Positions 5,750-18,983 of a stretch of 23,580 nucleotides of DNA are shown here, one piece after another (positions within the stretch are counted from its first letter, which is position 1; each line of letters begins with the position of its first letter). Made by a program: the position numbers and the translations under genes. The notes under the pieces were generated by a model. The model saw only the letters and a program-made list of their open reading frames with translations. It did not search any database and was not told where the DNA came from. The stretch comes from a virus, in the IMG/VR virus record IMGVR_UViG_3300048800_000176, positions 1 through 23,580 of that record; one strand, written 5' to 3'.

Positions 5750-5834
5750 ACGTCGCATAGAACATCAGCCGCGACGCGAGAATATGATCGGCGAGCCAGT
5801 CGATGACCCGATCGTCGCGACCGCGACCGGGCAT
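5661..5834 (-). CDS. Possible small membrane protein (57 aa), convergent overlap
   Basis: After the tail gene stop the leftward strand keeps an open frame with an ATG at 5834. The predicted product has a charged N-terminus, then a hydrophobic stretch around residues 23-40 (SRLMFYATFILSLCALPAP) compatible with one membrane span. It overlaps the 3' end of the rightward gene ending at 5749 by 89 bases and has only a weak ribosome site, so it may be a chance frame. Small membrane proteins in this position of actinophages are common, which is why it is kept at low confidence. Confidence 0.35.
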   Translation of the reverse strand: MPGRGRDDRVIDWLADHILASRLMFYATFILSLCALPAPFLRQELAGEDIGFCVASG

Positions 5835-5845
5835 GATCTCGCCGA
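5788..5845. terminator. Weak inverted repeat in the convergent junction
   Basis: TCGGCGAG (5788-5795) can pair with CTCGCCGA (5838-5845), with smaller GC-rich pairings inside. It lies between the rightward gene ending at 5749 and the leftward tail gene ending at 5875, where a bidirectional terminator is expected. There is no clear U-tract, so the call is weak. Confidence 0.25.
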
Positions 5846-5874
5846 GCCTGCCCTGTATCCGGACGGTGGCGGGC

Positions 5875-7899
5875 TTACTTCCCGACCTTGTAGTTGCCGT
5901 TGAACACCACGTTCGTGCTGGCGACACCGACAACTCCCGTGGGCACCGTCACTTGGACGGTCCCGTCGCTGCCGTAGATCCGGACGATTGTCGTGCCGCT
6001 GATCGTGCCGCTGATCGTGACCGTGGCGGGAATATCGACGAACTCGACGCCCATCGGCCGGAGATCCGAGGGCATTGTCCACATTGTTGCCGTGGTCGCG
6101 CTGGAAGCGTCGAGCCCGCCCTTGACATGGACGTTCCCGTCCATGTCCACCGAGAACGCGGGCCGTTCAAGCACGAAAATCCCGTAGAAGTCTCCGACCG
6201 TCCACCCGTTCTGTAGCGCTGCGGCGCCGCCAATCCCGACCGGCAAAAAGAACGTGCGAGCGGCGATCTTCGCGGCGCTCCTAACGCGGTCGGTTAACAG
6301 TGACGACTTGACTATCGCGTCCCGCACGCCTTTGCCCATCGCTCTGTGACCATTCATGTTCGTATGCGGGTTGATGTTGAACGTGTGGCCATCGTTCCAG
6401 TGGCTCGGATTCTGGGCAAGGATCGTGTCGATGTTCACGCCGATCACGCGGGATGCGAACTCGGCGTTCTCCATCGTCTGCTGACTGCCGATCCACGACA
6501 GGACCGCCGCGTCGTTCATCGGATCAGCACCGTCAGAACCGTTCGGGAACCCATCGGCGACGGTAAAGAACGTGTAGCCAACCGTTGATGGCATCCGCGC
6601 GGCTGTCTGACATGCGATGAGCGGCCCGTCGAGCGGGTCGGACTCCATCCCGCCGTGGCTGACGTTGAGATAGCCGGTGGTGTGAGTCGTGAGCATCACC
6701 TGAATCACCTGGCCGGCAGTGATGTTCGCACCGCTCGTCGGGTCCGTCGGACCACCAGACCCCAGCCGCAAAGTGACGCCGTTGAGCAGTGCCGAAGCCT
6801 CTGCTGCCTGGTCACAAATGACGCTGCCTTGCAGCCGCACCGTGCCGTAGACTGTCGCGTCGATTCCGACGGTGACCGTCACGTCCTGACTTTGGCTGAC
6901 AGGAATGCAAATCGGGTAGACGCGGCCGGGGGGAGCGTCTGCCGGCACCGTGAACTTCAACTGGTCGCCGACAACGCTCGTGCGCTGATACCCAGTGCCG
7001 GCGTTGGCGTGAACGTTGCCGGTGGTCGGGTTCACGCCTCCGCCCGCTACCTTCGCCCACGATCCGGCGCCTGTACCCGGAAAATCGGTGAAAACCATTG
7101 CGCTATCCGCGGCGGTCCCGTAAACGGTGTCCGCGCCTGATGCGAGATAGATCGCCGCGAGACACCGGGCCGACAGGATCGTACGATGCGCGTGCAGAGC
7201 GGGAGTCGGGTTGGAATGCCCGAGCTGCGGAAGGTCGTTGAAGATGTCGTTCATCATCGTGAGCTTGCTGCCCGGCGGGTATGGGTACTCCGGGGTCTGG
7301 TAGCAGCCGGGCATGCCCGGCACGAGGATGTTTTGCAACACCCATGACCAGCCACCGTGTACTGGTGAACCGCCGACCGGGCCGTCAGACCAGCACGCGC
7401 GACTGCCGCTCACAGCGATATTCCGGCGCGTGCGGGCGCCAAGCAATGTCGCGGCTATCTCCGACCAATTGTCAACCCACATGGTGGACGGCGGCCCAGC
7501 AAACGCATACGAATTGCCGTTCACCTCGACATGGTCGATGCCGGGACGGGCGTTCACCACAGACCTTGAATCTACGCCATTTATCTGCATGACGGTCGGG
7601 TTCGGAAGAGTGCCTGAAAGATCCCCGCCAGCGGGACTCCCACCCAAAATTGCGCGTGCGCCTGATTCACTCATGTCAATCGTCCCTCCTGGTGGTAAGG
7701 CAGGCCACGGAAAATCAGTCCGAGTCCAAGGGATCGCCCCAGGAACCAGAACAATAGTTGACTGTAAATCATCCCATTCTTCCCCAGAAAAATATCCTGA
7801 CTGTCCGATCGAGATAACTCCCGATGACACGTACAGAACAGACGTGCCATCTCTCTCCTCATCCTTGTTACCCCAATACGTGTACGTGCCAGAAGGCAT
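5875..7899 (-). CDS. Tail fibre/receptor-binding protein with SGNH (GDSL) hydrolase domain
   Basis: The 674-aa product has a phage-tail type N-terminus including GGDLSGTLPNP (91-101), a motif common in phage tail proteins. An SGNH-like domain follows, with block I as GNS (128-130, nucleophile S130), block II around VSGS (163-166), block III as FND (220-222), and block V at 503-518, where D503 and H505 or H512 could complete the triad. Between blocks III and V sits a beta-rich insertion (~270-430), so the enzyme looks split. The C-terminus (~575-674) is beta-rich and could be the tip. The family removes acyl groups from polysaccharides, so the likely job is host surface recognition and de-esterification. 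GNS for GDS is a variant. GGGGG upstream, overlapping the preceding stop, serves as ribosome site. Confidence 0.8.
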   Translation of the reverse strand: MPSGTYTYWGNKDEERDGTSVLYVSSGVISIGQSGYFSGEEWDDLQSTIVLVPGAIPWTRTDFPWPALPPGGTIDMSESGARAILGGSPAGGDLSGTLPNPTVMQINGVDSRSVVNARPGIDHVEVNGNSYAFAGPPSTMWVDNWSEIAATLLGARTRRNIAVSGSRACWSDGPVGGSPVHGGWSWVLQNILVPGMPGCYQTPEYPYPPGSKLTMMNDIFNDLPQLGHSNPTPALHAHRTILSARCLAAIYLASGADTVYGTAADSAMVFTDFPGTGAGSWAKVAGGGVNPTTGNVHANAGTGYQRTSVVGDQLKFTVPADAPPGRVYPICIPVSQSQDVTVTVGIDATVYGTVRLQGSVICDQAAEASALLNGVTLRLGSGGPTDPTSGANITAGQVIQVMLTTHTTGYLNVSHGGMESDPLDGPLIACQTAARMPSTVGYTFFTVADGFPNGSDGADPMNDAAVLSWIGSQQTMENAEFASRVIGVNIDTILAQNPSHWNDGHTFNINPHTNMNGHRAMGKGVRDAIVKSSLLTDRVRSAAKIAARTFFLPVGIGGAAALQNGWTVGDFYGIFVLERPAFSVDMDGNVHVKGGLDASSATTATMWTMPSDLRPMGVEFVDIPATVTISGTISGTTIVRIYGSDGTVQVTVPTGVVGVASTNVVFNGNYKVGK

Positions 7900-7908
7900 G
7901 ATGACACG

Positions 7909-8229
7909 CTACCCCCAGTAAACATCAAGCTCGATGTTCCCATCCACGATCTCAACGTAGATAGCGCCGTTAAACACTTCGAGAGACTGATCGCCAAACC
8001 AGTCTCGAGCTGACTCTCCAGGAGAAAGAGAAATCACAGCCGTCAATGCCGGGGACGATACTTTCGCTCCATCATGCAGACGAAAATGAGCGTAAGCGGA
8101 ACCAGTAGACTCCTTCGTGCTCCACCCGAACAACGCCGTAGGAACAACGGCGACGCCATCAACCTTAGTGACAAGAAGCTGCGAAGAGCCCGACGGATTC
8201 GGGCTCAACAGCGCAGTTTTCGCCGGCAT
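7909..8229 (-). CDS. Small beta-rich phage protein, probably structural
   Basis: The 106-aa product is not assigned to a family. It has alternating hydrophobic residues, many glycines and prolines and no helix-rich segment, ending in ELDVYWG, which suggests a small beta-sandwich such as a tail or decoration protein. It starts one base after the stop of the gene upstream on this strand and ends 9 bases before the tail fibre start, so it is inside the tail operon and may be a chaperone or component of the tail tip. Confidence 0.65.
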   Translation of the reverse strand: MPAKTALLSPNPSGSSQLLVTKVDGVAVVPTALFGWSTKESTGSAYAHFRLHDGAKVSSPALTAVISLSPGESARDWFGDQSLEVFNGAIYVEIVDGNIELDVYWG

Positions 8230-8230
8230 C

Positions 8231-8449
8231 TTAGACGGTGATGAGTTCGCGGATCCGTGATGTCGGAACCGCGCGAGCCTTACCGCTGGAAACGGTCTGC
8301 CCTTGATCGACAGGATTGGCGAACACGATAAACCCGTTCGAGACTGCCGCTACTGCCGCCGCAGCGGTAGCGTAGTCGGCGCTCGAAAACGAATCACTGC
8401 CTGTACCGCCCGAAACTTGGTCGGATGCGATTGTGACGAAGACGGAAAT
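8231..8449 (-). CDS. 72-aa phage protein with apparent ATT start codon
   Basis: The frame is open upstream to 8686, but that part overlaps the PD-(D/E)xK-like gene and has no good start. At 8449 an ATT codon is preceded by GGAGGG (complement of 8457-8462) with 7 bases between, an ideal Shine-Dalgarno distance, while no in-frame ATG, GTG or TTG lies between this point and the upstream gene's stop at 8538. ATT is a known rare start codon (infC is the classic case). The product is alanine, serine and glycine rich, with no membrane span and no recognised family; it is probably a small structural or tail-associated protein. Its stop is one base before the next start. Confidence 0.6.
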   Translation of the reverse strand: MSVFVTIASDQVSGGTGSDSFSSADYATAAAAVAAVSNGFIVFANPVDQGQTVSSGKARAVPTSRIRELITV

Positions 8450-8537
8450 GGCTCTGCCCTCCAGAAGAAGTTTCCAAGCGGCCTCGCCTGCCCGTATTGT
8501 TGTCGCGCCAAAGGATAGCGCAGATAAAAGACGTATG

Positions 8538-8924
8538 CTAATCGGTATCCCGCAGGAACGCAGGGACGCGCGAAAGTGATCGCACGATCTCCGACCGACG
8601 TGGCGTCCGAAAAGCTTGCGCTTCAGAAGTAAACACTTCCCCAGCATCCTCGAGCCGCATAACCAGAAACTTCTTACCATCATCATCTAAGAATGCGAGA
8701 GCTGGAGTTTCCCCCGTCTGGTAAGCCATCTCGACGGCTTCAACCATGAATGCACGGATCTTGGACCATGAGATACGCCCGGTCGTAGATTTGCATGAAA
8801 GCCTGATTCTCCCACGCGCATCTGATCGTTCATGCTGGTTTCCGCTACCTGGAGTGAGGCTAAGGCCGAGCATTTGAGCCGCTTCCGACTCAAAAGCTCG
8901 GCCTCTATCCTGCGATGAGAGCAA
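8538..8924 (-). CDS. PD-(D/E)xK-like nuclease fold protein (Holliday resolvase-like)
   Basis: The 128-aa product has the order expected of small phage resolvase-like proteins: an acidic helix with E12 and E14, the TPGSGN loop (24-29), D35, a strand ending in SCKST (43-47), then a helix and a last strand near 76-90. In the family the ExK or DxK position lies at the end of this strand; here it reads S43-C44-K45, so one acidic ligand is missing. The enzyme may use a different ligand or be inactive. Its place within the tail and lysis operon is unusual for a recombination nuclease. The start is TTG (8924), just after the preceding stop, with AGGGT upstream. Confidence 0.6.
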   Translation of the reverse strand: MLSSQDRGRAFESEAAQMLGLSLTPGSGNQHERSDARGRIRLSCKSTTGRISWSKIRAFMVEAVEMAYQTGETPALAFLDDDGKKFLVMRLEDAGEVFTSEAQAFRTPRRSEIVRSLSRVPAFLRDTD

Positions 8925-8925
8925 C

Positions 8926-9630
8926 TTACCCTACCGCTGAAGCAGGAGGCTCCCCTTGCGAAGTGGCCTCAGGAACCCCGGCATCTTCTGCCGGGACATC
9001 AACCGGATAGGACTCTTGCGGAACGTTTGGAGTGGGGAAGAATGCGGATCCTGGGGGGATCTGCACGACTGGAGGCTCCGAAGTGAAAGTGACGATCGGG
9101 TTCGCTGGAACTTCAGGTACTACGTGTTCAACGACCGGATCTGAGAATGTATCCTCGACAGGAAACGTCTGCACAGGGAATTTCACAGGGTTACCGGGAG
9201 GGAACAGCGTAGAAGCAGGCTCCGCGATAACCTCCGGCGCGGGTCCAGGGACTTCAACACTCGGTTGCGGAATCGGATCTTGAGCCGCTGGCGGCGACTG
9301 ATCCTCAGTCATCGGAGCGGCAGTGCTTGCCTCGGGCGGGAAGTTTCGCGCCGATCCTGCTGCGGAAGCGAGACCAGCATCTTCCACTGCAACCGCTGGC
9401 GGCAAAAGCGAGTTGATCTGAAGATTGATGCTGTCTCCGATCATCCCTGGGGATGGGTTGAGTTCCCCCGATCCGCTGACCGCGACATAACCGCCAGTAG
9501 CCTGCGCGAGCTTCATCAATGCTTCAGCGGCATGTACTGCGATCTCCGCTTCACGACCATTGGTTGCCGAAACAACCTGCACGGTGATGCTTTTGGCTTC
9601 GCCTTGAGTTGAAGAGAGAACGAAAGTCAT
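8926..9630 (-). CDS. Proline-rich phage protein with small N-terminal domain
   Basis: Residues ~1-75 form a compact domain in which ALMKLAQATGG is followed by VAVSGSGELNPSPG and a final beta-strand. The pattern resembles small actinophage proteins of unknown function (recollection, not searched). Residues ~78-234 are strongly enriched in Pro, Glu, Val and Ala without cysteine, and are probably extended and unstructured, as in spacer or wall-crossing segments. No signal peptide is seen. The ATG overlaps the stop of the holin-like gene as ATGA, and the next gene starts 2 bases after this stop. A link to the tail or lysis apparatus is inferred from position only. Confidence 0.65.
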   Translation of the reverse strand: MTFVLSSTQGEAKSITVQVVSATNGREAEIAVHAAEALMKLAQATGGYVAVSGSGELNPSPGMIGDSINLQINSLLPPAVAVEDAGLASAAGSARNFPPEASTAAPMTEDQSPPAAQDPIPQPSVEVPGPAPEVIAEPASTLFPPGNPVKFPVQTFPVEDTFSDPVVEHVVPEVPANPIVTFTSEPPVVQIPPGSAFFPTPNVPQESYPVDVPAEDAGVPEATSQGEPPASAVG

Positions 9631-9932
9631 GACTGCACCTGTGTGACAGGAGCAACGTTCTGCGCGTCCGCGAGCGTGACCACAGGCTGCGAGATTTGGT
9701 CAGACGTCGAGACCTTCGTTGGCACGATCGCGACGATTGGACTCGCCGAATCAGCCAAGTGATGAATCGCATTCGCTCCAAGAAACGCAGCCGCAACGAT
9801 CGCCGAGCACAACTGAATCAGGATCGACTTGTTTGGTGACCATGATGGTACGAGGGCAACAACCTGCCCGATGACTGTCGTCAGCCCGGCAATGATGCCA
9901 GCCTGAGTGATGCTGATATGCGTAGTTTTCAT
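9627..9932 (-). CDS. Holin-like small membrane protein (101 aa)
   Basis: The ATG at 9932 has GGAGC 6-7 bases upstream and is preferred to a longer in-frame start that would run inside the peptidase gene. The product has two hydrophobic stretches, ~8-32 (GIIAGLTTVIGQVVALV) and ~37-60 (LIQLCSAIVAAAFLGANAI), separated by a short polar turn (PSWSPNKS), then a polar tail. Two spans, ~100 aa and a position beside a lysin suit a class II holin, which forms holes in the inner membrane. Other small two-span phage proteins would look the same. Confidence 0.62.
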   Translation of the reverse strand: MKTTHISITQAGIIAGLTTVIGQVVALVPSWSPNKSILIQLCSAIVAAAFLGANAIHHLADSASPIVAIVPTKVSTSDQISQPVVTLADAQNVAPVTQVQS

Positions 9933-9940
9933 CAATGCTC

Positions 9941-10738
9941 CTAGATCGTTGATGGCGGTCCAACCCGACGAATAACCCAAAAATCGGCGGCCTGTCCTGT
10001 GTCGAAAAACCATTGAGGAAGATAGAAGTCGCCATTGTCGCCCCATCCAGCGCCCCAACTGTTACGGCATCTTTTAGTTCGCGGCGGAATCTTCCCGATC
10101 GTATCGGTAAAACTGGAGTTGTACCCAGTCAATGCCACGCAATGACGGCCAATAACTTGCTCGCCTTTCCCTGGTATCGGAACGATCCCAGTGGAAGCCA
10201 CCGAAGCACTCTCAAACGATTCGTACACGGTGAACCCAAAAGCGATCGGATACCCGCTAGCAATCGCTTGGTTCAAGTGCGGGTAATAGACGGCCTCATA
10301 AACGAGTGCTTCCTGCTGCTTAGCATCAGCGTACGCTTGCGATCCGGGCGCGACATTGAACACCTGATCGCTGTAAGGGAACTCGTTGTCAGGACAAACG
10401 CCGTACTTCGCGATTCCGGCCACTGAATCTCGAACAGTCGCGCCTGAATCCTGATCAGTGGTCCCTTCAGGAATGCGCGCGTCGTAATAGACCATCGCTC
10501 GACTCGGAACGACAACCGGCTCGCTCTGCTTCACCTGATCGTACATAACGAGCACGCAAGGACCATGACCCGTACAACTACCTTCAGCTCCCTGATCGAG
10601 AACAGGGATGCTCACAGTGTCCAACTCCATACTAACCGGGACCGTCTGCGCGGCGGCAGTGTGCAAGAACTGATGATCTCGCTGATCTGGGGCTTGCGGG
10701 TTCCATCCACCGTAATGTGTCTTGAGCAGATGGCTCAT
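9941..10738 (-). CDS. Papain-like (C1A) cysteine peptidase
   Basis: The 265-aa product shows the complete papain catalytic set: oxyanion Q49 and nucleophile C55 in LDQGAEGSCTG, H199 in GRHCVALTGYN, and N226 in RNSWGAGWGDNG. The N-terminus with P-D-x-R-D (17-21) is the form seen in bacterial C1A enzymes, without a long inhibitory propeptide. No signal peptide is visible, so export would need the holin or the virion. It is translated next to the lysin (ATGA overlap, plus its own AGGGAG 5 bases upstream) and the holin-like gene. It may digest cell-surface protein, process virion proteins or help lysis. C1A peptidases are uncommon in tailed phages. Confidence 0.88.
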   Translation of the reverse strand: MSHLLKTHYGGWNPQAPDQRDHQFLHTAAAQTVPVSMELDTVSIPVLDQGAEGSCTGHGPCVLVMYDQVKQSEPVVVPSRAMVYYDARIPEGTTDQDSGATVRDSVAGIAKYGVCPDNEFPYSDQVFNVAPGSQAYADAKQQEALVYEAVYYPHLNQAIASGYPIAFGFTVYESFESASVASTGIVPIPGKGEQVIGRHCVALTGYNSSFTDTIGKIPPRTKRCRNSWGAGWGDNGDFYLPQWFFDTGQAADFWVIRRVGPPSTI

Positions 10739-11886
10739 GCGAACTCCCTGAAAATTTGGCTAGCCTTGGAGGCGAAGAAGTTGTAACGCTGCCCCTGCCT
10801 CTGACAGACCTGACTTCGATAGGGCTTGCGACAGTTGTTGGTTCTCAGTGACCTTCTGGTCGAGTCTCGAGCGCCGCTGTAGATCGCAAGCTCAGGGCGA
10901 GCTATCTGGCAAGCCGGAACATTCTTCTGCGCGCCAACCCCCCAGCAGTGCGGATGCGATCCCTGATGAATGTCGATTCTCCGCTCAAAACTGATGACCG
11001 TACCAGCAAGAACGTGGCATCGTCTGAAACCGAGAGCGGGAGCTGCGCAACGCAATGACTTGTAAACGGACAACGCCGCATTACGCGCCTTTACCCATCC
11101 TAGAACCGGGTTGGGCGCAGGCTTCGGTGGAGCGTCCGCTGGCTGCTGCCCGTAGTCCAGAGCGATAGCCCGGTCAAAATCGACAGCAGACCCATTCTGG
11201 TACTGCTCGAGCGGCGCGCATCCAGCGGACGGCCAAACTCCGTTCGTCCGATAGAACCACGCATATGTAGCCCAGTTCGTGTTGCCAACAAGATGATGCG
11301 CACAAAGATAGTTGATCGGACCCGCACCGCCATAGGCGTTCGACCTTGAACTCAGAACCGACCGCGCACACGAAAAGTATGGCGCGACATCAGGTCCAGT
11401 GGCGTCAAAGTCGATCGCGAAATCAACGCTAGCGTTCGGGAATCCTAATGCCCGCTCTTCTGACTGTGCGGCCTGCGCGTCTGCGATCCCTGCTCCACAT
11501 CCCCCGAGCGCTCTCGTCGCGCTCGTTTCCCAAACGAAAACCGTCTTCTTTCCAGCAGAATGCCATTTTCTCAGGCAAGAAGCCGTCCAGTTTTTCGATA
11601 GATCGAACGAAAGATAGCTAGCTCCAAAATCATGCCCGCTAGGCGATGGGCATGACCAAGCGAAGTCGATTCCGAGCGCAAAAGTCCTGGCTGACTTCGG
11701 CAAAGGCTGAAGGTTGACCGGCGTTAGCGCGCAGTTCATCGTGAAATCCTTTGGATTGCACGAGCGCCCAGAAACGACTTTCGACGTGGGGACGAGGAAG
11801 ATAACGACCGCGAAAATGGTCACGGCAAGCGCTATGAGAAAAACGAGAAAAAATCTTAGCTTCTTCAACGCGGCACAGAATAGCAC
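10735..11886 (-). CDS. Membrane-anchored DUF1906-like glycoside hydrolase (endolysin)
   Basis: Residues ~9-33 are one strongly hydrophobic span after KK, a signal-anchor (SAR-type) N-terminus. Residues ~68-246 match the DUF1906/Rv2525c-like TIM-barrel glycoside hydrolase pattern: D74 in GIDF, E120 in VWE, D159-F-D161 in AIDFDATGP, QYQ (228-230) and D236. The expected function is peptidoglycan cleavage after membrane release. The start is GTG at 11886; TTG at 11868 is possible. The tail after ~340 is basic and less protein-like, whereas another frame there gives an amphipathic helix ending at 10760, so a frameshift is possible. In the frame given, the stop overlaps the peptidase start as ATGA. 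Confidence 0.78.
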   Translation of the reverse strand: MLFCAALKKLRFFLVFLIALAVTIFAVVIFLVPTSKVVSGRSCNPKDFTMNCALTPVNLQPLPKSARTFALGIDFAWSCPSPSGHDFGASYLSFDLSKNWTASCLRKWHSAGKKTVFVWETSATRALGGCGAGIADAQAAQSEERALGFPNASVDFAIDFDATGPDVAPYFSCARSVLSSRSNAYGGAGPINYLCAHHLVGNTNWATYAWFYRTNGVWPSAGCAPLEQYQNGSAVDFDRAIALDYGQQPADAPPKPAPNPVLGWVKARNAALSVYKSLRCAAPALGFRRCHVLAGTVISFERRIDIHQGSHPHCWGVGAQKNVPACQIARPELAIYSGARDSTRRSLRTNNCRKPYRSQVCQRQGQRYNFFASKASQIFREFA

Positions 11887-11959
11887 TTTGATCGGAGACT
11901 TGTCGTTGTCTCAACCCGGCGCAGAAGATGCTGCCGCTCAAGCAAGCAATACGATCGCG

Positions 11960-12031
11960 CTAGACGCGCCGCGCCAGGCTGAGAATCAAAATTATCAAGA
12001 TCACGACGATAAGCAAACTAACTAGGTCCAT
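11960..12031 (-). CDS. 23-aa single-span membrane protein
   Basis: An ATG at 12031 is preceded by the near-perfect ribosome site AGGAGG (8 bases away). The frame encodes a short product whose residues 3-19 are all hydrophobic or serine (LVSLLIVVILIILILSL) and which ends in RRV. This is a single membrane span with a positive C-terminal end, like very small phage or bacterial membrane regulators. It lies directly upstream of the membrane-anchored lysin on the same strand, so a role in lysis timing (pinholin or antiholin type) is a reasonable guess. The strength of the ribosome site argues against chance. Confidence 0.6.
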   Translation of the reverse strand: MDLVSLLIVVILIILILSLARRV

Positions 12032-12103
12032 GAGAGACCTCCTGCGGTAGTGGGTTGCTGGAATAACTTACCGGGATCTCGCTCAGACAATGCCCGACTG
12101 CCG

Positions 12104-12184
12104 TCATAGCCGTCGTCTTCCGGCGTAAAGAATGCCTCCCGTCCAAAGCGCGGCAAGCAAAGCAAAAATGATCCAGGCCGCCAT
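12104..12184 (-). CDS. 26-aa single-span membrane protein
   Basis: The ATG at 12184 shares its A with the preceding stop (TGATG), which favours coupled translation, and GGGGA lies upstream. The product has residues 2-20 hydrophobic (AAWIIFALLAALWTGGILY) and ends in GRRRRL-like basic residues, giving an N-out/C-in single span by the positive-inside rule. Together with the 23-aa neighbour it forms a pair of micro membrane proteins between the coiled-coil protein and the lysin. Function is unknown; a lysis-control role is inferred from position. Confidence 0.6.
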   Translation of the reverse strand: MAAWIIFALLAALWTGGILYAGRRRL

Positions 12185-12618
12185 CAGTGTCCCCATTGCG
12201 CCAGAATCGCGACAAAAACCCCGGCGTATGCACCCAAAGCACCAAGCCCCATAACCCATATCTGACGGCGAGAGAACCGGGCTTTGGCTTGAATGGAGAC
12301 GCTATTAGCCAGCGCCTGCGTGATCGCCAAGCTCTTGTCCCAAGCGGCGGCCAGCTCAGACATCCCCTCCTTGAGGTCCTCTAGTGCCTTGGCCGTCTTG
12401 CGCTGAGTGTCGTCAATCTCATCCAGCCGCCGTGAGTGGTCAGAGATGTCCCTATCGACAAGGGCATCCTTGACGGCACGCTCAGTCATCTTCTCGGCAT
12501 CAGCAAGTGCCAGTCCGGCGGCGCGGTCTGAGGCGACGCGGACGAGCCCGGCGGCACGGTCCGCGGCCATCCGTGCCAGCATCTCAGCTTTCTGCTCAAC
12601 AGTCTGATTATCCGACAT
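12184..12618 (-). CDS. Coiled-coil protein with C-terminal membrane anchor (XhlA-like layout)
   Basis: The start at 12618 follows GAGGAGGGG. The 144-aa product has a long charged helical region (~5-110) with heptad-like spacing, including the near-repeat VASDRAAGL / MAADRAAGL, and one hydrophobic span near the C-terminus (~118-140, WVMGLGALGAYAGVFVAIL). This order matches the lysis-associated XhlA/holin-partner layout, in which cytosolic coils are tethered to the membrane beside holin and lysin. It is the first gene of the leftward lysis and tail operon. Sequence identity to XhlA is not claimed; only the architecture is similar. Confidence 0.62.
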   Translation of the reverse strand: MSDNQTVEQKAEMLARMAADRAAGLVRVASDRAAGLALADAEKMTERAVKDALVDRDISDHSRRLDEIDDTQRKTAKALEDLKEGMSELAAAWDKSLAITQALANSVSIQAKARFSRRQIWVMGLGALGAYAGVFVAILAQWGH

Positions 12619-12792
12619 CAGACTTCCCCTCCTCACGCACAGCCACAGCCACAAGGTCGAAGCGAAGATCGGACGGATATACCCAAACTCCTGCCGGATC
12701 CAGAAAATCGGTAGCAGAACAAGACGCGACCCCTCCCAATGTCCCGAGCGGCGTCGCCTGCTCTCTTTGCGAAAAAAATCTACCAAATTTTC

Positions 12793-12820
12793 TTGACAGG
12801 CGCAAATTCGAGTCTAGGAT
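12793..12820 (+). promoter_or_regulatory. Strong sigma70/SigA-type promoter
   Basis: TTGACA (12793-12798) is a perfect -35 box. A 16-base spacer is followed by TAGGAT (12815-12820), which fits the actinobacterial TAnnnT -10. Transcription would start near 12827 and run into the hairpin series and the helicase gene. Confidence 0.75.
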
Positions 12821-12826
12821 CAAATC

Positions 12827-12940
12827 AAAAACGGTTCAGTTTCTCAGACGCTCGATCAGAATTCTCGCAAGACTGAACCGTCTGGAATAACGAAAATGGG
12901 CGCCTTGTAGATTTGAACTACAAGGCACCCATTTTCGTTC
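12827..12940 (+). ncRNA. Candidate small RNA: promoter, hairpin, terminator
   Basis: Downstream of the promoter a perfect 10-bp inverted repeat (ACGGTTCAGT 12831-12840, ACTGAACCGT 12872-12881) makes a hairpin. An alternative pairing of CAGACG (12845-12850) with CGTCTG (12879-12884) overlaps its 3' arm. The terminator-like hairpin at 12889-12939 follows immediately. No open frame of note exists in it. It could be an independent ~110-base RNA or an attenuating leader of the helicase gene. Confidence 0.45.
12889..12939. terminator. Long, probably bidirectional terminator hairpin
   Basis: AACGAAAATGGG (12889-12900) pairs with CCCATTTTCGTT (12928-12939) and GCCTTGTAG (12902-12910) with CTACAAGGC (12918-12926), with one mismatch and a 7-base loop. 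The A-rich and T-rich arms give U-rich 3' sides on both strands, as in bidirectional terminators. Confidence 0.75.
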
Positions 12941-12971
12941 GGCAGAACCGAGGGGCATCACCCGGCAAGCC

Positions 12972-13008
12972 CTGAGAACACAAAGGCCCCATATTTCAGG
13001 GGCCTCAG
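12972..13008 (+). promoter_or_regulatory. GC-rich leader hairpin
   Basis: GGCCCC (12985-12990) pairs with GGGGCC (12999-13004), and an outer CTGA (12972-12975) with TCAG (13005-13008) across an internal loop. It lies in the transcribed leader of the helicase gene. A regulatory or stabilising role is inferred. Confidence 0.5.
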
Positions 13009-13010
13009 CG

Positions 13011-13039
13011 CTGGGAGACGCGAGCAATCGCGGTCCCAG
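13011..13039 (+). promoter_or_regulatory. GNRA-capped hairpin directly before the helicase start codon
   Basis: CTGGGA (13011-13016) pairs with TCCCAG (13034-13039), and inside it GCGA (13020-13023) pairs with TCGC (13028-13031) around the GCAA tetraloop. The start codon begins 2 bases after the stem. No Shine-Dalgarno is exposed, so the structure probably controls translation. Confidence 0.6.
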
Positions 13040-13040
13040 A

Positions 13041-14522
13041 ATGATAGCACAGCTTCAAGGGCTCGCGCAGCCGGTATTTTGCGCCCTTGCGTATGATGCG
13101 ATCAACTTGATCGTCCGTATCGACCATTCCATTCATCTGGACGAGCCTTCTACGCCACCAGAGTTCCTGCAACGAGTTCTCAAAGAACTCACGATCATCA
13201 ACCCTGGCAAAGAACGAGCACTAGCGGAGCTGATCCGTGGCGCTGGGAACTTGCCTGACGAAATCGTCCTCTGGCGCCGTTCTGGCCGCAAGATCATCAT
13301 CCCGAGAGGATTCGTTCACCGCTTCGAGCAGATCGCGGAGCAAGAAGGCATCGACATCGAATGGGATTCTCGTATGACGCTCCTGCCGCCATCAGAGCAC
13401 TGCTTCCGTGATTGGCCGGCAGCGGAGTTGCGCGACTACCAGATCCCAGCGCGAGATGCGATGCTCAACTGGTCACAGGGAGTGCTCGAGGCGCCGACTG
13501 GATCGGGAAAAACCCGAATATGCCTTGAGTTCGTCCGCTGGGCTGGACAAAAAACGCTCGTGATCGTCGGCAAGGTTTCTCTTGCGCGCCAATGGCAGGC
13601 TGTCGTCCAAGAAGTGTACGGATACGAGACAGGGTTCATCGGAGAAGGTCAATGGGATGAACGCGACTTGACGATCGCGCTATGGCAGTCTCTGCATCGG
13701 AAGAGCGAGAACGGATCAATGAAGTGGGGATGCGTGATCGTAGATGAAGTCCACCATTGCGCGGCGGATTCTCTGTCGAATGTCACGGAAGGTTTAGACG
13801 CTTTCTACCGCTTCGGCTGCTCGGCGACGCCGCGATGGGATCCGCTGCTATTCCCGATCATCGAAGCATCTGTCGGACCGATCATCCACAGAATCCTACC
13901 AGCGCAGGTTGGAAGCAGCCTCATCTCGCCCACCGTGCGCGTCATCGAAACCGATTTCGCGATGGCGTACAAGGCGACGATCCGCTTCAAAGGACGCCGA
14001 CAGCAAAACAATTTCGCCGAAATTATGGCCGCGCTCGTTGCTGATCCTGCGCGCAACGATCTTCTCGCCAAGATCGCTCGTGACGAAGCGCTCGATGGTC
14101 ATCACGTTCTGATCGTCACCCGACGCATTGAGCACGTCCGTCAGCTCGTCTCGCGGCTCGAGAACGACTTCGACCTTGGGAACGACCTGAATGTCCTGAC
14201 AGGTGCTCAGACCGGCGCAGATGCCCGCAGGATCGCTCACACGATAGATCAGGCGCAAAGCGGAACGATTCTCGTGAGCACGGTCGCCGAGGAAGCGCTC
14301 GACTTCCCCAAACTGAATCGTTTGATCATGGCGTACCCGCTACGACGGCTCCCGCTGATCGAGCAACAGGTGGGGCGCATCCTACGCCCGGTACCGAGAA
14401 AAGAGGGCGCGACGGTCTACGACATCGCTGATCCGAAGACCAGCGTTCTGCGCGCTCAAAGAACTGAGCGCATGAAGCTCTACGCAAGACGCGGCTGGAA
14501 GATCGAAACCGAAGATTCTTGA
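13041..14522 (+). CDS. SF2 DNA helicase (DEAD/DEAH-like)
   Basis: The 493-aa product has an N-terminal accessory region (~1-125) and two RecA-like domains. Visible motifs are RDYQ (131-134), Walker A APTGSGKT (151-158), DEVHH (235-239), SATP (261-264), and in the second domain VSTVAEEALDFP (motif V) and QQVGRILRP (motif VI). This is the XPB/UvsW/RecG-like type used by phages in replication, recombination or repair. The ATG at 13041 is taken although no Shine-Dalgarno is visible, because a stable hairpin ends just before it; a later TTG (13107) is possible. It is the only gene of its transcript before the origin-like region. Confidence 0.92.
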   Translation: MIAQLQGLAQPVFCALAYDAINLIVRIDHSIHLDEPSTPPEFLQRVLKELTIINPGKERALAELIRGAGNLPDEIVLWRRSGRKIIIPRGFVHRFEQIAEQEGIDIEWDSRMTLLPPSEHCFRDWPAAELRDYQIPARDAMLNWSQGVLEAPTGSGKTRICLEFVRWAGQKTLVIVGKVSLARQWQAVVQEVYGYETGFIGEGQWDERDLTIALWQSLHRKSENGSMKWGCVIVDEVHHCAADSLSNVTEGLDAFYRFGCSATPRWDPLLFPIIEASVGPIIHRILPAQVGSSLISPTVRVIETDFAMAYKATIRFKGRRQQNNFAEIMAALVADPARNDLLAKIARDEALDGHHVLIVTRRIEHVRQLVSRLENDFDLGNDLNVLTGAQTGADARRIAHTIDQAQSGTILVSTVAEEALDFPKLNRLIMAYPLRRLPLIEQQVGRILRPVPRKEGATVYDIADPKTSVLRAQRTERMKLYARRGWKIETEDS

Positions 14523-14658
14523 CGCTCGACGTCCCGTGTTTCAACGACCGAGGATGCCAGCCCTTCTAACGCGTCTCGCCAATACGTATGTACTGAGATT
14601 CTCGCTGAGCGTTGAGCAATTTTCGCACGCTCCAATACTCTACTTTTCCGTAAGCCAT

Positions 14659-14847
14659 CTCCCGCCAGCGGGAGCCGCGTACGTAATCTCAAAAGCATCG
14701 GTGGGAATGGGGCGGACTTCTAAATGAAGTTTCAAAATAAGACTCAGTCTCATTTTCCTTAAATATTTTAAAAGAAGAAGTAATCTCTGTAAGTAGTCTC
14801 TGGTATTGTGCTCCCGCTGGCGGGAGACCATCTCCCGCCAGCGGGAG
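14659..14847. repeat. Three copies of a 16-bp palindrome
   Basis: CTCCCGCCAGCGGGAG lies at 14659-14674 and 14832-14847, and its reverse complement CTCCCGCTGGCGGGAG at 14811-14826. Copies two and three are only 5 bases apart. Each can form a short hairpin or be a site for a dimeric protein. Confidence 0.85.
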
Positions 14848-14857
14848 GCGCTTTTTC
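14832..14857 (+). terminator. Possible rho-independent terminator after the helicase gene
   Basis: The third palindrome copy forms a CTCCCG/CGGGAG stem, followed within a few bases by CTTTTT. This would end rightward transcription before the convergent winged-helix gene. Confidence 0.5.
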
Positions 14858-14966
14858 CTACGTACGTAGGCCTATTTTCCCTACGTACGTATCTCATGAG
14901 AGAGCTTGACGATACCTTCATCATCTAACTTCCACCATCTCGTCTGGTCCATCCGTACGTACGGAT
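14857..14966. promoter_or_regulatory. Iterated TACGTACGTA palindromes, possible operator or iterons
   Basis: CCTACGTACGTAGG (14857-14870) is a perfect 14-base palindrome, TACGTACGTA recurs at 14882-14891, and ATCCGTACGTACGGAT (14951-14966) is a perfect 16-base palindrome inside the adjacent coding sequence. Looser relatives lie at 14583-14592 (TACGTATGTA) and near 14677. Their spacing around a DNA-binding protein gene suggests that they are its sites. Confidence 0.6.
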
Positions 14967-15228
14967 TCTGTATTGAGATGACGAGTCCACGCTCTTTCAA
15001 TGCGTCCAAGGCACGCTCGGTTTGCTTGTAGCTCAACCCGAGTTCGTCGCCCCATTCCTTGTAGGTCTTGTAGACCCATGTGTGCCCGTCGTGCTCTTTT
15101 GTCGAACGCTGCACCCAGTAGTGGAGCTGCTCAAGCACGATGGCTTGCGTGAGGCTCCCGAGTGCGGCAGCGACGGAAGGGCGATAGACCTGTGGGCGTT
15201 CTCCGAAAATGCTGGAGGAATCTTGCAT
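14881..15228 (-). CDS. Winged helix-turn-helix protein (replication initiator or regulator-like)
   Basis: The 115-aa product reads like the N-terminal DNA-binding domain of phage and plasmid replication proteins: YRPSVAAALGSLTQAI (15-30), a helix with QLHYW (34-38), KEWGDELGLSYKQTERAL (57-74) as the recognition region, then a wing (KERGLV, residues 78-83) and RWWKLD (97-102). It lacks the long C-terminal domain of many such proteins, so it may be a truncated initiator or act as a repressor. The start has AGGAGA 6 bases upstream. It is the only leftward gene in this part and is surrounded by palindromes that may be its binding sites. Confidence 0.8.
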   Translation of the reverse strand: MQDSSSIFGERPQVYRPSVAAALGSLTQAIVLEQLHYWVQRSTKEHDGHTWVYKTYKEWGDELGLSYKQTERALDALKERGLVISIQNPYVRMDQTRWWKLDDEGIVKLSHEIRT

Positions 15229-15460
15229 CTGTTCTCCTTTGAGATATTTGTGCCGGAAGGATATGTGTTACCTTCCATACCGGTGCAGATAAGGGCGACA
15301 TCTTATCGCCTACTCGGCCTCTAGCCCCGAAGATTCGAGATATGTCTTCGGGGCTACGTCGTTCTTGAGGGAATCAAAAAAAAACTTTCGCTTGACGTGC
15401 TACTCGACTTATGATTTGATCTCGAGCCAAGGGATTGAATGCGAGCTGTGAGGAGAAGCA
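15229..15460. promoter_or_regulatory. Divergent control region with several inverted repeats
   Basis: The region lies between the leftward winged-helix gene and the rightward replication operon. It has GGAAGG/CCTTCC (15255-15260 and 15271-15276), GATAAG/CTTATC (15288-15293 and 15302-15307) and the 11-bp hairpin AGCCCCGAAGA/TCTTCGGGGCT (15323-15333 and 15345-15355). These suit operators or transcript hairpins. No gene is seen in it. Confidence 0.6.
15392..15420 (+). promoter_or_regulatory. Likely promoter of the rightward replication operon
   Basis: TTGACG (15392-15397), a 17-base spacer and TTTGAT (15415-15420) form a plausible SigA-type promoter. A run of nine A (15376-15384) sits just upstream, like an UP element. 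The first gene starts 40 bases later. Confidence 0.5.
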
Positions 15461-15610
15461 TTGACCACTTTTTGCCGGATGATCATTTTCGCTATTTGCG
15501 CGGCCGGCGCAGCGGAGAATCAGGTTCTCCACGTCGGTAGTCTTATGCAAGGTCTTTTAATTGTGGGCGCAATCATCATGTTCATCATCATTGCTGGAGA
15601 GGACATCTGA
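15461..15610 (+). CDS. 49-aa small membrane protein, TTG start
   Basis: TTG at 15461 is preceded by AGGAG 5 bases upstream. The product has two hydrophobic parts, ~7-18 (MIIFAICAAGAA) and ~29-45 (LLIVGAIIMFIIIAG), and a short acidic end (EDI), so one or two membrane spans. It ends 3 bases before the next start codon and heads the rightward operon. The function is unknown; it could affect membrane attachment of replication or superinfection. Confidence 0.6.
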   Translation: MTTFCRMIIFAICAAGAAENQVLHVGSLMQGLLIVGAIIMFIIIAGEDI

Positions 15611-15613
15611 GCG

Positions 15614-15808
15614 ATGTCAGAACCGCAAGCTCAGCACAACAATTTTGGGCACAGGAGCAAGGTAAAAAGTTCCAACGCACGCGCCAACCATCTTGCGCTC
15701 AAGAGCATGACGCAGGCGCAAAGGGAAACTGGGCTCACTCCCGAAGAGCTTGAGAAATATCAAGCATCCCTCCGAACCTCCTTCTACGACCGCCGAGAAG
15801 CATCATGA
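15614..15808 (+). CDS. Small hydrophilic protein of unknown function
   Basis: The 64-aa product is charged, with no membrane span and no recognised motif; a helix is likely at ~28-55. The ATG has GGAGAGGAC about 10 bases upstream, and its stop overlaps the next start as ATGA. Its reading frame is supported by tight packing within the operon. Confidence 0.6.
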   Translation: MSEPQAQHNNFGHRSKVKSSNARANHLALKSMTQAQRETGLTPEELEKYQASLRTSFYDRREAS

Positions 15809-16206
15809 CGCGACGTTTCAGGAACTCTCTTATTGCGATCCTGCTCTTTTTCTGGGAGCGCATCCTTGGGGCTGAGGATGAATCATCACAGGCTTTTCCC
15901 TCAGAACCGCGTCAACCCCGGCGTGATCTTACGAACGGGCTTGAAGAAGAAATGAGCGGTCGTACCATCGAGATATGGGTTCCTCACAACCTCGAGCGCC
16001 GACTGAAAGCTGCGATACATCGAGCCAACGCTTCAGGGCTCGTCGCGGGATGGGACGGGGACCAATTCTTCGATCTTCAGGATGATCTTCAGACGTTTCT
16101 AATCTCGACCTCAGAGATCGGCATGAAAATTTACGAGATAGATGACGGCGTCGTCTATGACGAAACCACCGGGTGCCCAATCGGCATTCTCCCCGAAGGA
16201 GTTTGA
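15805..16206 (+). CDS. Unknown protein with short N-terminal hydrophobic segment
   Basis: Residues ~8-20 of the 133-aa product are hydrophobic (SLIAILLFFWERILG), which may be a membrane-contacting helix but is short for a full span. The remaining part has an acidic hinge and a soluble-looking alpha/beta region (~48-130), including ISTSEIGMKIYEIDDG. No family is recognised. The start shares ATGA with the previous stop. Confidence 0.62.
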   Translation: MTRRFRNSLIAILLFFWERILGAEDESSQAFPSEPRQPRRDLTNGLEEEMSGRTIEIWVPHNLERRLKAAIHRANASGLVAGWDGDQFFDLQDDLQTFLISTSEIGMKIYEIDDGVVYDETTGCPIGILPEGV

Positions 16207-16208
16207 GT

Positions 16209-16517
16209 ATGGCTCAAGAACAACAGCAGGCTAAGACGGCTCGTGAGAGCACCGAGAAGGGACAGATCGAATCAGGAGAATGGTTTTCTCACAACGGCGT
16301 TCCGATGGTAAAGTATTCATGCTCGGCATCCGAGTTGATTCCCACCATCCAGTACGGGAACGTGCTTATAGGGCCAGTTTCCGTGCAACGTTTTGCGCCT
16401 GACGATGAGAACCTTTACGCGGTAATTCAGAAGACACAGTCTGTTTGCGAGCAAGCAGTTGCTGAAGAACGCCAAACTGTGCAGACGCTTCTGCGCTCCA
16501 ACGCTGCTACCGCGTAG
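16209..16517 (+). CDS. Small phage protein, unknown function
   Basis: The 102-aa product begins at ATG 16209, 2 bases after the preceding stop, with GAAGGAG upstream; a longer in-frame start at 16173 lies inside the previous gene. A central conserved-looking block, CSASELIPTIQYGNVLIGPV (~37-56), followed by an acidic and helical end, resembles small phage replication-cluster proteins seen in actinophages (recollection, not searched). No catalytic motif is seen. It sits directly upstream of the DnaB-like helicase. Confidence 0.65.
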   Translation: MAQEQQQAKTARESTEKGQIESGEWFSHNGVPMVKYSCSASELIPTIQYGNVLIGPVSVQRFAPDDENLYAVIQKTQSVCEQAVAEERQTVQTLLRSNAATA

Positions 16518-16525
16518 CGCGCGGA

Positions 16526-17794
16526 ATGAATGTTGACCGCGCTCTTTTAACCAAGAGCATTCAAACTGGAGCTGTCGTCCAGCTAATTTCTCGCGGCGTG
16601 TCTGCGCACCAGTTCACGCAGACTCCTGACGGTGAAGAGCTGGCCGACGTGCTGAACTGGATGATAGATCACACGCGCCGTTATAACGTGGCGCCGTCGA
16701 TGTCCCTATTCCGTCAGCGGTGGCCGGAGTTCCGGATGGAACCATCGGCGGATCCTCTCGATGCGCTGATCGACGCTTTTTTCGCGAACGTGAAGCGCCG
16801 GCACTTTGCGGCGAAAGTGAAAGAGCTTGCTCACGCCGAGTATGACCCTTCCAAATGGTTGAAGTTGGATGAGATCATGCTCGATGCTGCTAAAGACCTG
16901 GCCGCAATAGTCCCTACCGGCAGAGTTTCTCGCTTCAGTGAGATGAACAAACGTGTTGACCGTTATGAGCTTGAGGTTGCAAACCCAGAATTACAGTCAG
17001 CATTCAAGATGGGCATCAAACCTTTTGATGACGCAACAGGAGGATTCCGGCCAGGAAATCTGGTGACGATCGCAGGCTATAGCGGAAGAGGAAAAAGCTT
17101 ACTGTCACAATTCTTTCTCATGCAGGCGCGAGAGTCACATGATGCTCTCGGGCTCTTGATAAGCCTCGAGATGACTGCTGACGAGATTTTCGAGCGGCTC
17201 GACACGATGGTAACCAACTTTTCTCACAAGCTTCTCGCGCAGCGACAGTTGCCGGAAGACAAGGTTGATCTCTGGCGTCGCATTGCCAAGCAGTTTCAAT
17301 CCTCGCGTTCAGACATCATCGTCAAGGACAATCTTCTTGGATGCACGACCGATACTGTCTACGCTGAGATTTCACGATACAAACCAGACATTGTTGCTGT
17401 TGATTATGTGCAGCTCATGCGTTCCAAGCAGAACTACGCGGCACAATGGCAAGTCCTTTGTGACATTACTAACGACCTGAAACAGATCGCGCTCTCAACC
17501 GGCACTGTGATCCTGATGGTTTCTCAAGACGGTAGAGATTCTGCGAAAAACGGTTCGACCGAAGAGAACATGGGCAGCTCAGTGTCGATACTTCAAGCGG
17601 CCGATATCTACCTTGGGTTGAATCAGACAGACGAGATGTATAAAGACCGGCGTATGGAGATCAGGATGCTCAAGAACCGGCGCGGTCCCAAAGAAACGTG
17701 CGCTTACATGGATTGGGATCCGAATACGATGACTTTCAAGTATCACGACGAAGCGAAGCCTCAATCTGAGAGCTTCTTGAGAGAGGTAGCGTGA
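16526..17794 (+). CDS. dnaB: DnaB-like replicative helicase
   Basis: The 422-aa product has a DnaB-type N-terminal helical part (~1-130) and a RecA-like motor with Walker A GYSGRGKS (184-191), catalytic E215 in SLEM, Walker B ending D293 in VAVDY, SQ at 333-334 and an arginine-finger region KNRRG (383-387). It unwinds duplex DNA ahead of the fork as a hexamer, 5'-3'. The ribosome site is weak, so translation may be coupled to the previous gene. The primase-like gene lies downstream, with the glycosyltransferase cluster between them. Confidence 0.94.
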   Translation: MNVDRALLTKSIQTGAVVQLISRGVSAHQFTQTPDGEELADVLNWMIDHTRRYNVAPSMSLFRQRWPEFRMEPSADPLDALIDAFFANVKRRHFAAKVKELAHAEYDPSKWLKLDEIMLDAAKDLAAIVPTGRVSRFSEMNKRVDRYELEVANPELQSAFKMGIKPFDDATGGFRPGNLVTIAGYSGRGKSLLSQFFLMQARESHDALGLLISLEMTADEIFERLDTMVTNFSHKLLAQRQLPEDKVDLWRRIAKQFQSSRSDIIVKDNLLGCTTDTVYAEISRYKPDIVAVDYVQLMRSKQNYAAQWQVLCDITNDLKQIALSTGTVILMVSQDGRDSAKNGSTEENMGSSVSILQAADIYLGLNQTDEMYKDRRMEIRMLKNRRGPKETCAYMDWDPNTMTFKYHDEAKPQSESFLREVA

Positions 17795-18318
17795 TGTTAG
17801 TGGGGTTCAACGCTATGAACCATCCTCAACAGATTTCCAAGCGGGGCGCCAATCCGCACGTTGATGAGCGTCAAACTTCACCAGAAGCTTTTGATCCATT
17901 GCACGCGAGGTTCCGCTTTACGGTTGATGTTGCTGCGCTTCCACGTAATGCGAAGCTGCCAAAGTTTTATACACCTGAAGACGATGGTCTAACCCAGAAT
18001 TGGTCGGGGGAGCGTGTTTGGTGTAATCCTCCATACTCTTCAATCGAGCCTTGGGTAGAGAAGGCGCATAGAGAATGGCGGATTGGTGAACAAGGACGAG
18101 GCGGTCCTGAGTTGATCGTGATGCTTCTACCTGCCAATCGTACTGAACAAGGGTGGTGGCAACGCAAGGTTGAACCGTTCCGGGATCGTCTTGGATCGGA
18201 TTTCCGAGTTGAGTTTTTGTCAGGGCGCCTACGTTTCATCGCATTCGACGCGACAGAAATCAAGCCAAATGAGCGACCACCATTCGGATGCTGTCTTCTG
18301 ATTTGGAGCAAGTCATGA
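17794..18318 (+). CDS. Phage Dam-type DNA N6-adenine methyltransferase
   Basis: The 174-aa product fits the short phage Dam family (PF05869-like): a DVAA segment (45-48) preceded by ERQTSPEAFDPL, and the catalytic NPPY (78-81) in VWCNPPYSSIEPW. It would transfer methyl groups from SAM to adenine N6, often to block host restriction. The ATG at 17794 shares its A with the helicase stop (TGATG); GTG at 17791 or ATG at 17815 are alternatives. It is the first of a tightly overlapping group of modification and transferase genes. Confidence 0.88.
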   Translation: MLVGFNAMNHPQQISKRGANPHVDERQTSPEAFDPLHARFRFTVDVAALPRNAKLPKFYTPEDDGLTQNWSGERVWCNPPYSSIEPWVEKAHREWRIGEQGRGGPELIVMLLPANRTEQGWWQRKVEPFRDRLGSDFRVEFLSGRLRFIAFDATEIKPNERPPFGCCLLIWSKS

Positions 18319-18983
18319 AGATTGTGTGCATGTTGAACTGGTTTGATGAGCAGCCGCATCAACTTCGTCGCCGCGTTAGAGAAGCATTTATGATCGGGTG
18401 TACGCATGTCGTAGCTGTCGATGGTGCCTACGCTCTATTTCCTGGTAGCAGGGAATTTTCTTCATCTTCTCAAGGCAAGGAGATCACAGATACAGCATTC
18501 TTCTACAAGCTTGGGTGCATCATTTACAAACCAGAAGTAGTTTGGGCGGGGAATGAAATCGAGAAGCGTCAGAATATGGTTGACATCTGTCTCGCGATCA
18601 CGACCGATGATGATTGGCTGTTTCTTATGGACGCTGATTTCCATATCGAGCCCCCATTCGTCAACATGACTAAGTTACTCGCCGAGCATCCAGGACGGTT
18701 CGGAGACGTGTTGTTGACAGACAGCGATCAGGATGCAGGATGGTATCCGGTGCGCCTCCTTTACCGAGCTGTTCGAGGGATGCACTTGACGACGAACCAC
18801 TACACCTACCATTATCCTGATGGGGATCAAACAGTGATGAACAATCCTCGCGGCGACGATTTGGAGCGCGGGTTGAAAATTCCGATCCGTGTCCGGCATG
18901 AACCTAATAATCGTTTACCAGGTCGTCGTGAAAGACAAGTTGCTTATTACGAGCGGCGGCATCAAGATGGGATCGAGTCATGA
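18315..18983 (+). CDS. Glycosyltransferase-like protein 1 (GT-A fold)
   Basis: The 222-aa product begins with a typical nucleotide-sugar binding strand (MKIVCMLNWFDE) and has DAD (106-108) in LFLMDADF as the metal and sugar-nucleotide binding DxD. There is no membrane span or signal peptide, so it is cytosolic. The ATG at 18315 overlaps the preceding stop as ATGA and has GGAGC upstream. The acceptor and donor cannot be told from the sequence. Confidence 0.75.
   Translation: MKIVCMLNWFDEQPHQLRRRVREAFMIGCTHVVAVDGAYALFPGSREFSSSSQGKEITDTAFFYKLGCIIYKPEVVWAGNEIEKRQNMVDICLAITTDDDWLFLMDADFHIEPPFVNMTKLLAEHPGRFGDVLLTDSDQDAGWYPVRLLYRAVRGMHLTTNHYTYHYPDGDQTVMNNPRGDDLERGLKIPIRVRHEPNNRLPGRRERQVAYYERRHQDGIES

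What the first reader, a model, noticed from the sequence alone, without database searches (positions are those of the whole stretch)
11960..12184. Two micro membrane proteins (26 and 23 aa) upstream of the lysin
Both frames have good start signals (TGATG coupling; AGGAGG) and each encodes one clean membrane span with basic C-terminus. They are below the length cut-off of gene finders. With a coiled-coil anchor protein, a SAR-type lysin and a separate holin candidate they form a four- or five-part lysis system that would be new if confirmed.
Basis: partly seen in the sequence, partly recalled or inferred. Interest (0 to 1): 0.7.

Follow-up and report, generated by a model that had tools for sequence, protein, structure and literature searches.

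The report
Two tiny membrane proteins before lysin
A phage fragment carries one convincing 23-residue and one plausible 26-residue membrane-protein gene just before its cell-wall-cutting enzyme; many-part lysis gene sets are already known, and what is unusual here is how small these two are and that the enzyme is tied to the membrane.

Summary
Both short frames exist as described, on the minus strand: 26 aa at 12184-12104 (TGATG overlap with the upstream gene) and 23 aa at 12031-11960 (AGGAGGT, 5 nt before ATG). The 23-aa frame is well above chance: none of 20,000 shuffles of the gap gives a membrane span of hydropathy 3 or more (it has 3.54), and no 18-45 aa frame in 2.45 Mb of other viral DNA combines span >=3.2 with SD >=6 (two frames in L049 come close). 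The 26-aa frame is only suggestive. The surroundings are a lysis cassette: tail-anchored coiled-coil protein, the micro frames, a PF08924 lysin with an N-terminal span, a papain-like protease and a two-span holin candidate. The lysin's span is too hydrophobic for a typical SAR domain; 0 of 78 readable related phage lysins have such a span. The decisive test, conservation, could not be made: the only kin found is a 99.97-100% identical record. Lysis cassettes with four membrane proteins, and phage P1's SAR endolysin with four holin or antiholin proteins, are in print, so a four- or five-part system is not new as such. Best reading: very small holin-like accessories of a known kind of cassette; a new variant if translated.

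The parts
12184..12618 (-). 144-aa coiled-coil protein with C-terminal membrane span (tail anchor, predicted N-in), first gene of the cassette
   Evidence: SD AGGAGG; span hydropathy 2.07, four basic residues before it; no significant Pfam/PHROG family, weak phrog_1193 'hemolysin' E 0.019
12104..12184 (-). 26-aa single-span frame, predicted N-out/C-in; possible translated partner
   Evidence: TGATG overlap with the gene above, weak GGGGA, span 2.08, RRR tail; no family match
12018..12107 (-). 29-aa frame with ATGA overlap to the 26-aa stop, running into the 23-aa start; at most a coupling leader
   Evidence: sequence read-out; no SD, no span; speculative
11960..12031 (-). 23-aa single-span frame, predicted N-out/C-in; probable real gene
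   Evidence: AGGAGGT at 5 nt, span 3.54, RR tail; no equal in 2.45 Mb of other viral DNA
10735..11886 (-). Lysin, PF08924 glycoside-hydrolase-like domain, with strong N-terminal membrane span; start GTG 11886 or TTG 11868 (neither with a good SD), or ATG 11739 (SD AAGGA) without the span
   Evidence: PF08924 E 2.6e-9, phrog_13480 endolysin E 6.8e-11; alignment profile matches Rv2525c structures 4pmn/4pmq; starts
9941..10738 (-). Papain-like cysteine peptidase
   Evidence: PF00112 E 1.2e-6, phrog_16701 E 3.6e-10; overlaps lysin end
9627..9932 (-). 101-aa two-span protein, candidate holin
   Evidence: SD AGGAG, two spans; no family match

Best explanation
The stretch is the middle of a phage lysis operon, probably of an actinobacterial phage. 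The 23-aa frame, and less surely the 26-aa frame, are translated single-span N-out/C-in membrane peptides that act as very small holin-like accessories: they insert in the cytoplasmic membrane with the tail-anchored coiled-coil protein and tune or trigger depolarisation together with the two-span holin, while the lysin is held at the membrane by its own N-terminal span (export through Sec is inferred). Shown here: frames, start signals, spans by hydropathy, lysin domain, cassette context. Inferred: translation, topology, membrane permeabilisation, any interaction, and the host group (from the lysin's closest relatives, and the DnaB and FtsK relatives).
For: 23-aa: longest SD match in the window at an ATG and hydropathy 3.54; 0 of 20,000 shuffles with span >=3; no ORF of 18-45 aa with span >=3.2 and SD >=6 in 246 other viral loci, 2,445,077 bases, both strands. 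Context: lysin family; coiled-coil tail-anchored proteins recur near lysins or papain-like peptidases: 9 of 79 papain loci within 3.5 kb and 12 of 79 lysin loci within 2.5 kb by a crude filter, e.g. L273 amidase, tail-anchored coil, two-span protein, papain (Amidase_2 E 9.8e-24). L014, the closest lysin kin among the viral contigs (41% identity), has two single-span proteins of 97 and 88 aa directly upstream, the places the anchor and the micro frames hold here. A single-span N-out/C-in lysis protein is known by genetics: LysF1b (PMC13056207, abstract and passages).
Against: No divergent relative holds the cassette, so conservation is untested. Micro single-span frames with SD are not enriched near related lysins (same strand 3, opposite 3, in 82 loci) or papain genes (3 vs 5 in 79). 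The 26-aa frame lacks a good SD, and ORFs starting at a stop-overlapping ATG have spans hardly more often (5 of 89) than all short ATG ORFs (277 of 6422). The lysin's long-form start has no good SD. The RNA fold around the 23-aa start is not significant (z 0.05 and -0.81).
Confidence: 0.5

Rival explanations
1. Only the 23-aa frame is a gene; the 26-aa frame is a chance frame at the end of the anchor gene, and the gap is leader sequence.
For: A span >=2.0 arises in 681 of 20,000 shuffles of the gap; stop-overlapping ATG frames are hardly enriched for spans (5 of 89 vs 277 of 6422); no SD match of 4 nt or more at its ATG by my filter.
Against: TGATG overlap, RRR tail and weak GGGGA fit a coupled gene; otherwise 152 nt between the anchor stop and the 23-aa start would be non-coding.
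Confidence: 0.3
2. Both are real membrane micro-proteins, but not for lysis: superinfection exclusion, a membrane toxin of the type I toxin-antitoxin sort, or a regulator of a host membrane protein.
For: Tandem micro single-span genes occur outside lysis genes: L049 31 and 35 aa behind a 77-aa protein that I recognise from memory (not searched) as TM2-domain-like, on the strand opposite the lysin-family gene; L273/L274/L275 38-aa span gene coupled to a non-lysis gene.
Against: Position inside the lysis operon between the anchor and the lysin; no Rfam family found in the window.
Confidence: 0.15
3. Neither frame is translated: hydrophobic frames by chance.
For: No homologue in any library; no enrichment of such frames near kin lysins.
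Against: Joint start signal and hydropathy of the 23-aa frame: 16 of 20,000 shuffles reach even SD >=6 with span >=2, none a span >=3; none in 2.45 Mb at span >=3.2 and SD >=6.
Confidence: 0.05

Closest known systems
Actinophage lysis cassettes with several holin-like membrane proteins (Gordonia phage Xenia2; PMC11385102, passages read)
   Same: One lysin plus several membrane proteins of one or more spans in one cassette
   Different: Xenia2 proteins have 2, 4, 4 and 1 spans and were called as annotated genes; here two single-span frames of 23 and 26 aa
LysF1a/LysF1b of Mycobacterium phages Girr and NormanBulbieJr (PMC13056207, abstract and passages read)
   Same: A two-span protein plus a single-span N-out/C-in protein with basic residues after the span
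   Different: LysF1b is 124 aa with a long charged cytoplasmic domain; the micro frames have only a few residues after the span
Phage P1 lysis system Lyz, LydA, LydB, LydC, LydD (PMC9025707, abstract read)
   Same: Lysin with an N-terminal span and several holin-like proteins; five parts
   Different: P1 genes lie in several operons and Lyz is a SAR endolysin; here one gene run and a strongly hydrophobic lysin anchor
Phage Mu gp22 SAR endolysin with gp25 releasin (PMC9239132, passages read)
   Same: A membrane-held lysin beside a small protein with one span and a cytoplasmic domain
   Different: gp22 span is weakly hydrophobic (10 of 20 weak residues), here 4 of 19; gp25 carries an N-terminal span, the protein here a C-terminal one; the only test against DUF2730 is the Pfam scan, which did not list it
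XhlA-type coiled-coil tail-anchored protein of Bacillus PBSX cassettes (recalled)
   Same: N-terminal coil, C-terminal span, next to holin and lysin
   Different: No significant match: phrog_1193 'hemolysin' E 0.019 only

Membership tests
Phage lysis cassette | Adjacent cell-wall hydrolase gene | tested here: met
   PF08924 E 2.6e-9 above the gathering score; phrog_13480 endolysin E 6.8e-11
Phage lysis cassette | Holin-like membrane protein in the same operon | tested here: inconclusive
   Two-span 101-aa protein by hydropathy, but no family match
SAR endolysin | N-terminal span of weakly hydrophobic residues | tested here: not met
   Hydropathy 3.31 over 19 residues, 4 of 19 G/A/S/T; yardstick 10 of 20 in Mu gp22
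SAR endolysin | Release from the membrane by a pinholin or loss of proton motive force | not testable with these tools
   Needs expression
Holin (functional) | Lethal membrane permeabilisation at a set time | not testable with these tools
   Needs expression
Holin (sequence families) | Match of the micro frames to a Pfam, PHROG or NCBIfam family | tested here: not met
   0 families for both frames; lengths of 23-26 aa make such matches unlikely in any case
XhlA (anchor protein) | Profile match | tested here: inconclusive
   phrog_1193 E 0.019, residues 54-86 only; no XhlA model among the Pfam matches

The most novel reading that the evidence does not exclude
The 26- and 23-aa peptides form a two-component minimal pinholin, each only one membrane span, that depolarises the membrane and thereby frees or switches on a non-SAR, strongly membrane-tethered Rv2525c-like lysin, with the coiled-coil tail-anchored protein as timer and the two-span protein as a second holin.
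Probability: 0.1. Interest if true: 0.75.

Novelty: new variant of a known kind. Interest (0 to 1): 0.4.

Why it matters
If translated and lytic, 23-26 aa peptides would be among the smallest phage lysis proteins I know of (recalled, not searched exhaustively), and gene finders with a length cut-off would be missing parts of lysis cassettes. A tethered lysin of strong hydrophobicity would also raise the question of how it is freed, since the SAR release rule would not apply.

Tried and rejected
Conservation test: single-protein scans with lysin, anchor, helicase and DnaB found only IMGVR_UViG_3300048797_000283, 3 mismatches in 11,149 aligned bases and none in 10300-14200: uninformative. Bacterial genomes: lysin domain scan, anchor and holin candidate in 341 genomes of one family: 1 of 341 a weak anchor hit at E 4.7e-4, not followed up, and 0 of 341 for the holin candidate. 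Named phages: no DNA match for 5001-17000; no lysin match at 1e-5, 4 weak ones at relaxed E.

Rejected: SAR lysin. RNA switch at the 23-aa start: a 6-bp stem covers part of the SD, but the folds are no better than shuffles. Dual start of the 26-aa frame (ATG 12196/12184): no SD of 4 nt or more listed at the outer ATG and no added charge. Enrichment of micro spans in lysis or papain neighbourhoods: none. Sigma-70 promoter for the cassette: none on the minus strand in 9500-13200. Structure prediction was not run: with no alignment of the micro frames it would not decide the question.

Dropped rows: 4 of 82 lysin loci (L023, L028, L041, L050) had no readable ORF, so 78 were judged; 11 of 80 bacterial loci had none, so 69 were judged, 3 of them (L208, L209, L214) with an N-terminal span >=1.8. 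My gene caller favours longer genes, so lists of small proteins undercount micro genes; some 'tail-anchored coil' calls look spurious (L071-L073, three copies of one sequence, and L089; L288 and L298).

Full report
What the window is. The window is a whole IMG/VR virus record of 23,580 bases, GC 0.54. Of 20 products scanned against PHROGs none matched a capsid or portal family, and only the FtsK-like protein had a secondary match to a terminase family, so it is probably a fragment. The plus strand holds replication genes: sliding clamp, FtsK-like protein, helicase, DnaB-like helicase, primase. The minus strand from 12618 down to 9627 holds the cassette discussed here.

The observation. Both frames are present at the stated place on the minus strand. 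The 26-aa frame begins on the ATG that overlaps the TGA of the 144-aa gene. The 23-aa frame begins 5 nt after AGGAGGT. Each has one span and a basic tail, which by the positive-inside rule (established knowledge) predicts N-out/C-in.

Is it more than chance? In 20,000 dinucleotide-preserving shuffles of the 297-nt gap, an ORF of at least 18 aa with a span >=2.0 appeared in 681, SD >=6 nt in 674, both at once in 16, and a span >=3.0 in none; the 23-aa frame has SD 7 and span 3.54. In 246 other viral loci (2,445,077 bases, both strands) no ORF of 18-45 aa had span >=3.2 with SD >=6; the nearest are two tandem ORFs in L049 (span 2.97 with SD 6, and 3.26 with SD 5). For the 26-aa frame: of 3459 ORF ends (ORFs of at least 120 aa), 697 have an ATG overlapping the stop, 89 of these give 18-45 aa, and 5 have a span >=2.0; 5 of 89 is close to the 277 of 6422 among all ATG ORFs of that length. 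So a stop-coupled span is rare per gene end (5 of 3459), but the coupling itself adds little evidence. I put the 23-aa frame at about 0.9 to be translated and the 26-aa frame at about 0.6 (judgement).

The neighbours. The 144-aa protein has a strong AGGAGG, a coil-like N-terminal part and a C-terminal span preceded by basic residues. The lysin has a PF08924 domain (E 2.6e-9) and endolysin family phrog_13480; a four-sequence profile that includes it matches Rv2525c (4pmn, 4pmq). Its N-terminal span is unusual: 0 of 78 readable related phage lysins reach 1.8 in the first 60 residues (highest 1.74, L021) and 3 of 69 bacterial relatives do, against 3.3 here. The start of the long form (GTG 11886 or TTG 11868) has no SD-like sequence of at least 4 nt except a GATC match at 11886, which I do not count, while ATG 11739 has AAGGA at 7 nt; a short, untethered product or a double product cannot be excluded. 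Next come a papain-like peptidase and a two-span protein with AGGAG.

Related cassettes. No relative of the anchor or micro frames was found apart from the near-identical record, but the same kind of arrangement recurs. L273 has a 66-aa single-span protein, an Amidase_2 lysin, a tail-anchored coil protein, a two-span protein and the papain-like peptidase on one strand. L276 has a lysin-like gene (not searched by profile), a tail-anchored coil, three- and two-span small proteins and the peptidase. L284 has the peptidase, a tail-anchored coil, a two-span and a one-span protein. L014, the closest lysin kin among viral contigs, has single-span proteins of 97 and 88 aa just before the lysin, the second overlapping its start. 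Thus the window's cassette is of a recurring kind, with two very small members in the places where these others have proteins of 59-111 aa.

Mechanism. Most likely the 23-aa peptide, perhaps with the 26-aa one, is a holin-like accessory that acts with the tail-anchored coil protein and the two-span protein. The best genetic parallel is LysF1b, a single-span N-out/C-in protein needed for efficient lysis by Mycobacterium phages Girr and NormanBulbieJr (PMC13056207, abstract and passages). How a lysin with so hydrophobic an anchor becomes active is open: it may be cleaved after export, work while tethered, or be made mainly from the internal start. The SAR label is not supported on composition.

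Against known systems. Cassettes with many membrane proteins are in print: Xenia2 with four (PMC11385102) and P1 with a SAR endolysin, a holin, an antiholin and two more holins (PMC9025707). I saw no report of lysis proteins of 23-26 aa in the listings of the searches, which do not cover most subscription journals and were not aimed at single-gene lysis phages; one search returned nothing. The review of phage small proteins (PMC11323111, passages) does not contain the word holin in its main text.

Verdict. The 'new four- or five-part lysis system' does not stand as a claim of kind; what would be new is the size of the parts and the tethered PF08924 lysin.

Noticed in passing
window 10735-11886 (minus), starts 11886, 11868, 11739: Lysin with a strong N-terminal span not seen in 78 related phage lysins; an internal ATG with AAGGA would give an untethered form, so a two-product lysin is possible.
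   Followed up: partly
window 12889-12939: 22-nt inverted repeat, 95% complementary, 7-nt loop, between the divergent cassette and helicase genes, downstream of a plus-strand TTGACA-16-TAGGAT at 12793-12820; leader hairpin or operator.
   Followed up: no
window 12018-12107 (minus) and 11865-11945 (minus): 29-aa frame (ATGA overlap) and 26-aa TTG frame (TTGA overlap with lysin start TTG 11868) would make a nearly unbroken chain of frames from anchor to lysin; no SD, may be chance.
   Followed up: partly
L049:6119-6558 (minus): Two tandem micro membrane genes (31 and 35 aa, SD AGGAG and AAGGAG) spaced 1 nt apart behind a 77-aa protein that resembles a TM2-domain protein (recalled), on the strand opposite a lysin-family gene.
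   Followed up: partly
L273:6479-6595, L274:6794-6910, L275:3395-3511 (minus); L276 near 4062 (minus): Short single-span proteins of 38-42 aa, alike by eye in L273 and L274/L275, overlapping the stop of an upstream non-lysis gene: a conserved micro membrane gene.
   Followed up: partly
window 221-754 and 4229-5047 (plus): Long pentapeptide-repeat-like frames (ANLSGANL...), with repetitive frames open on both strands.
   Followed up: no
window 18288-22229 (plus): Run of glycosyltransferase- and methyltransferase-like frames; only 20235-20849 was matched to a galactosyl transferase family, the rest by eye.
   Followed up: no
L269-L347 and window 9941-10738: Papain-like peptidase encoded in 430 viral contig stretches, in some with lysin, tail-anchored coil and small membrane proteins nearby: perhaps an under-described companion of phage lysis genes.
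   Followed up: partly
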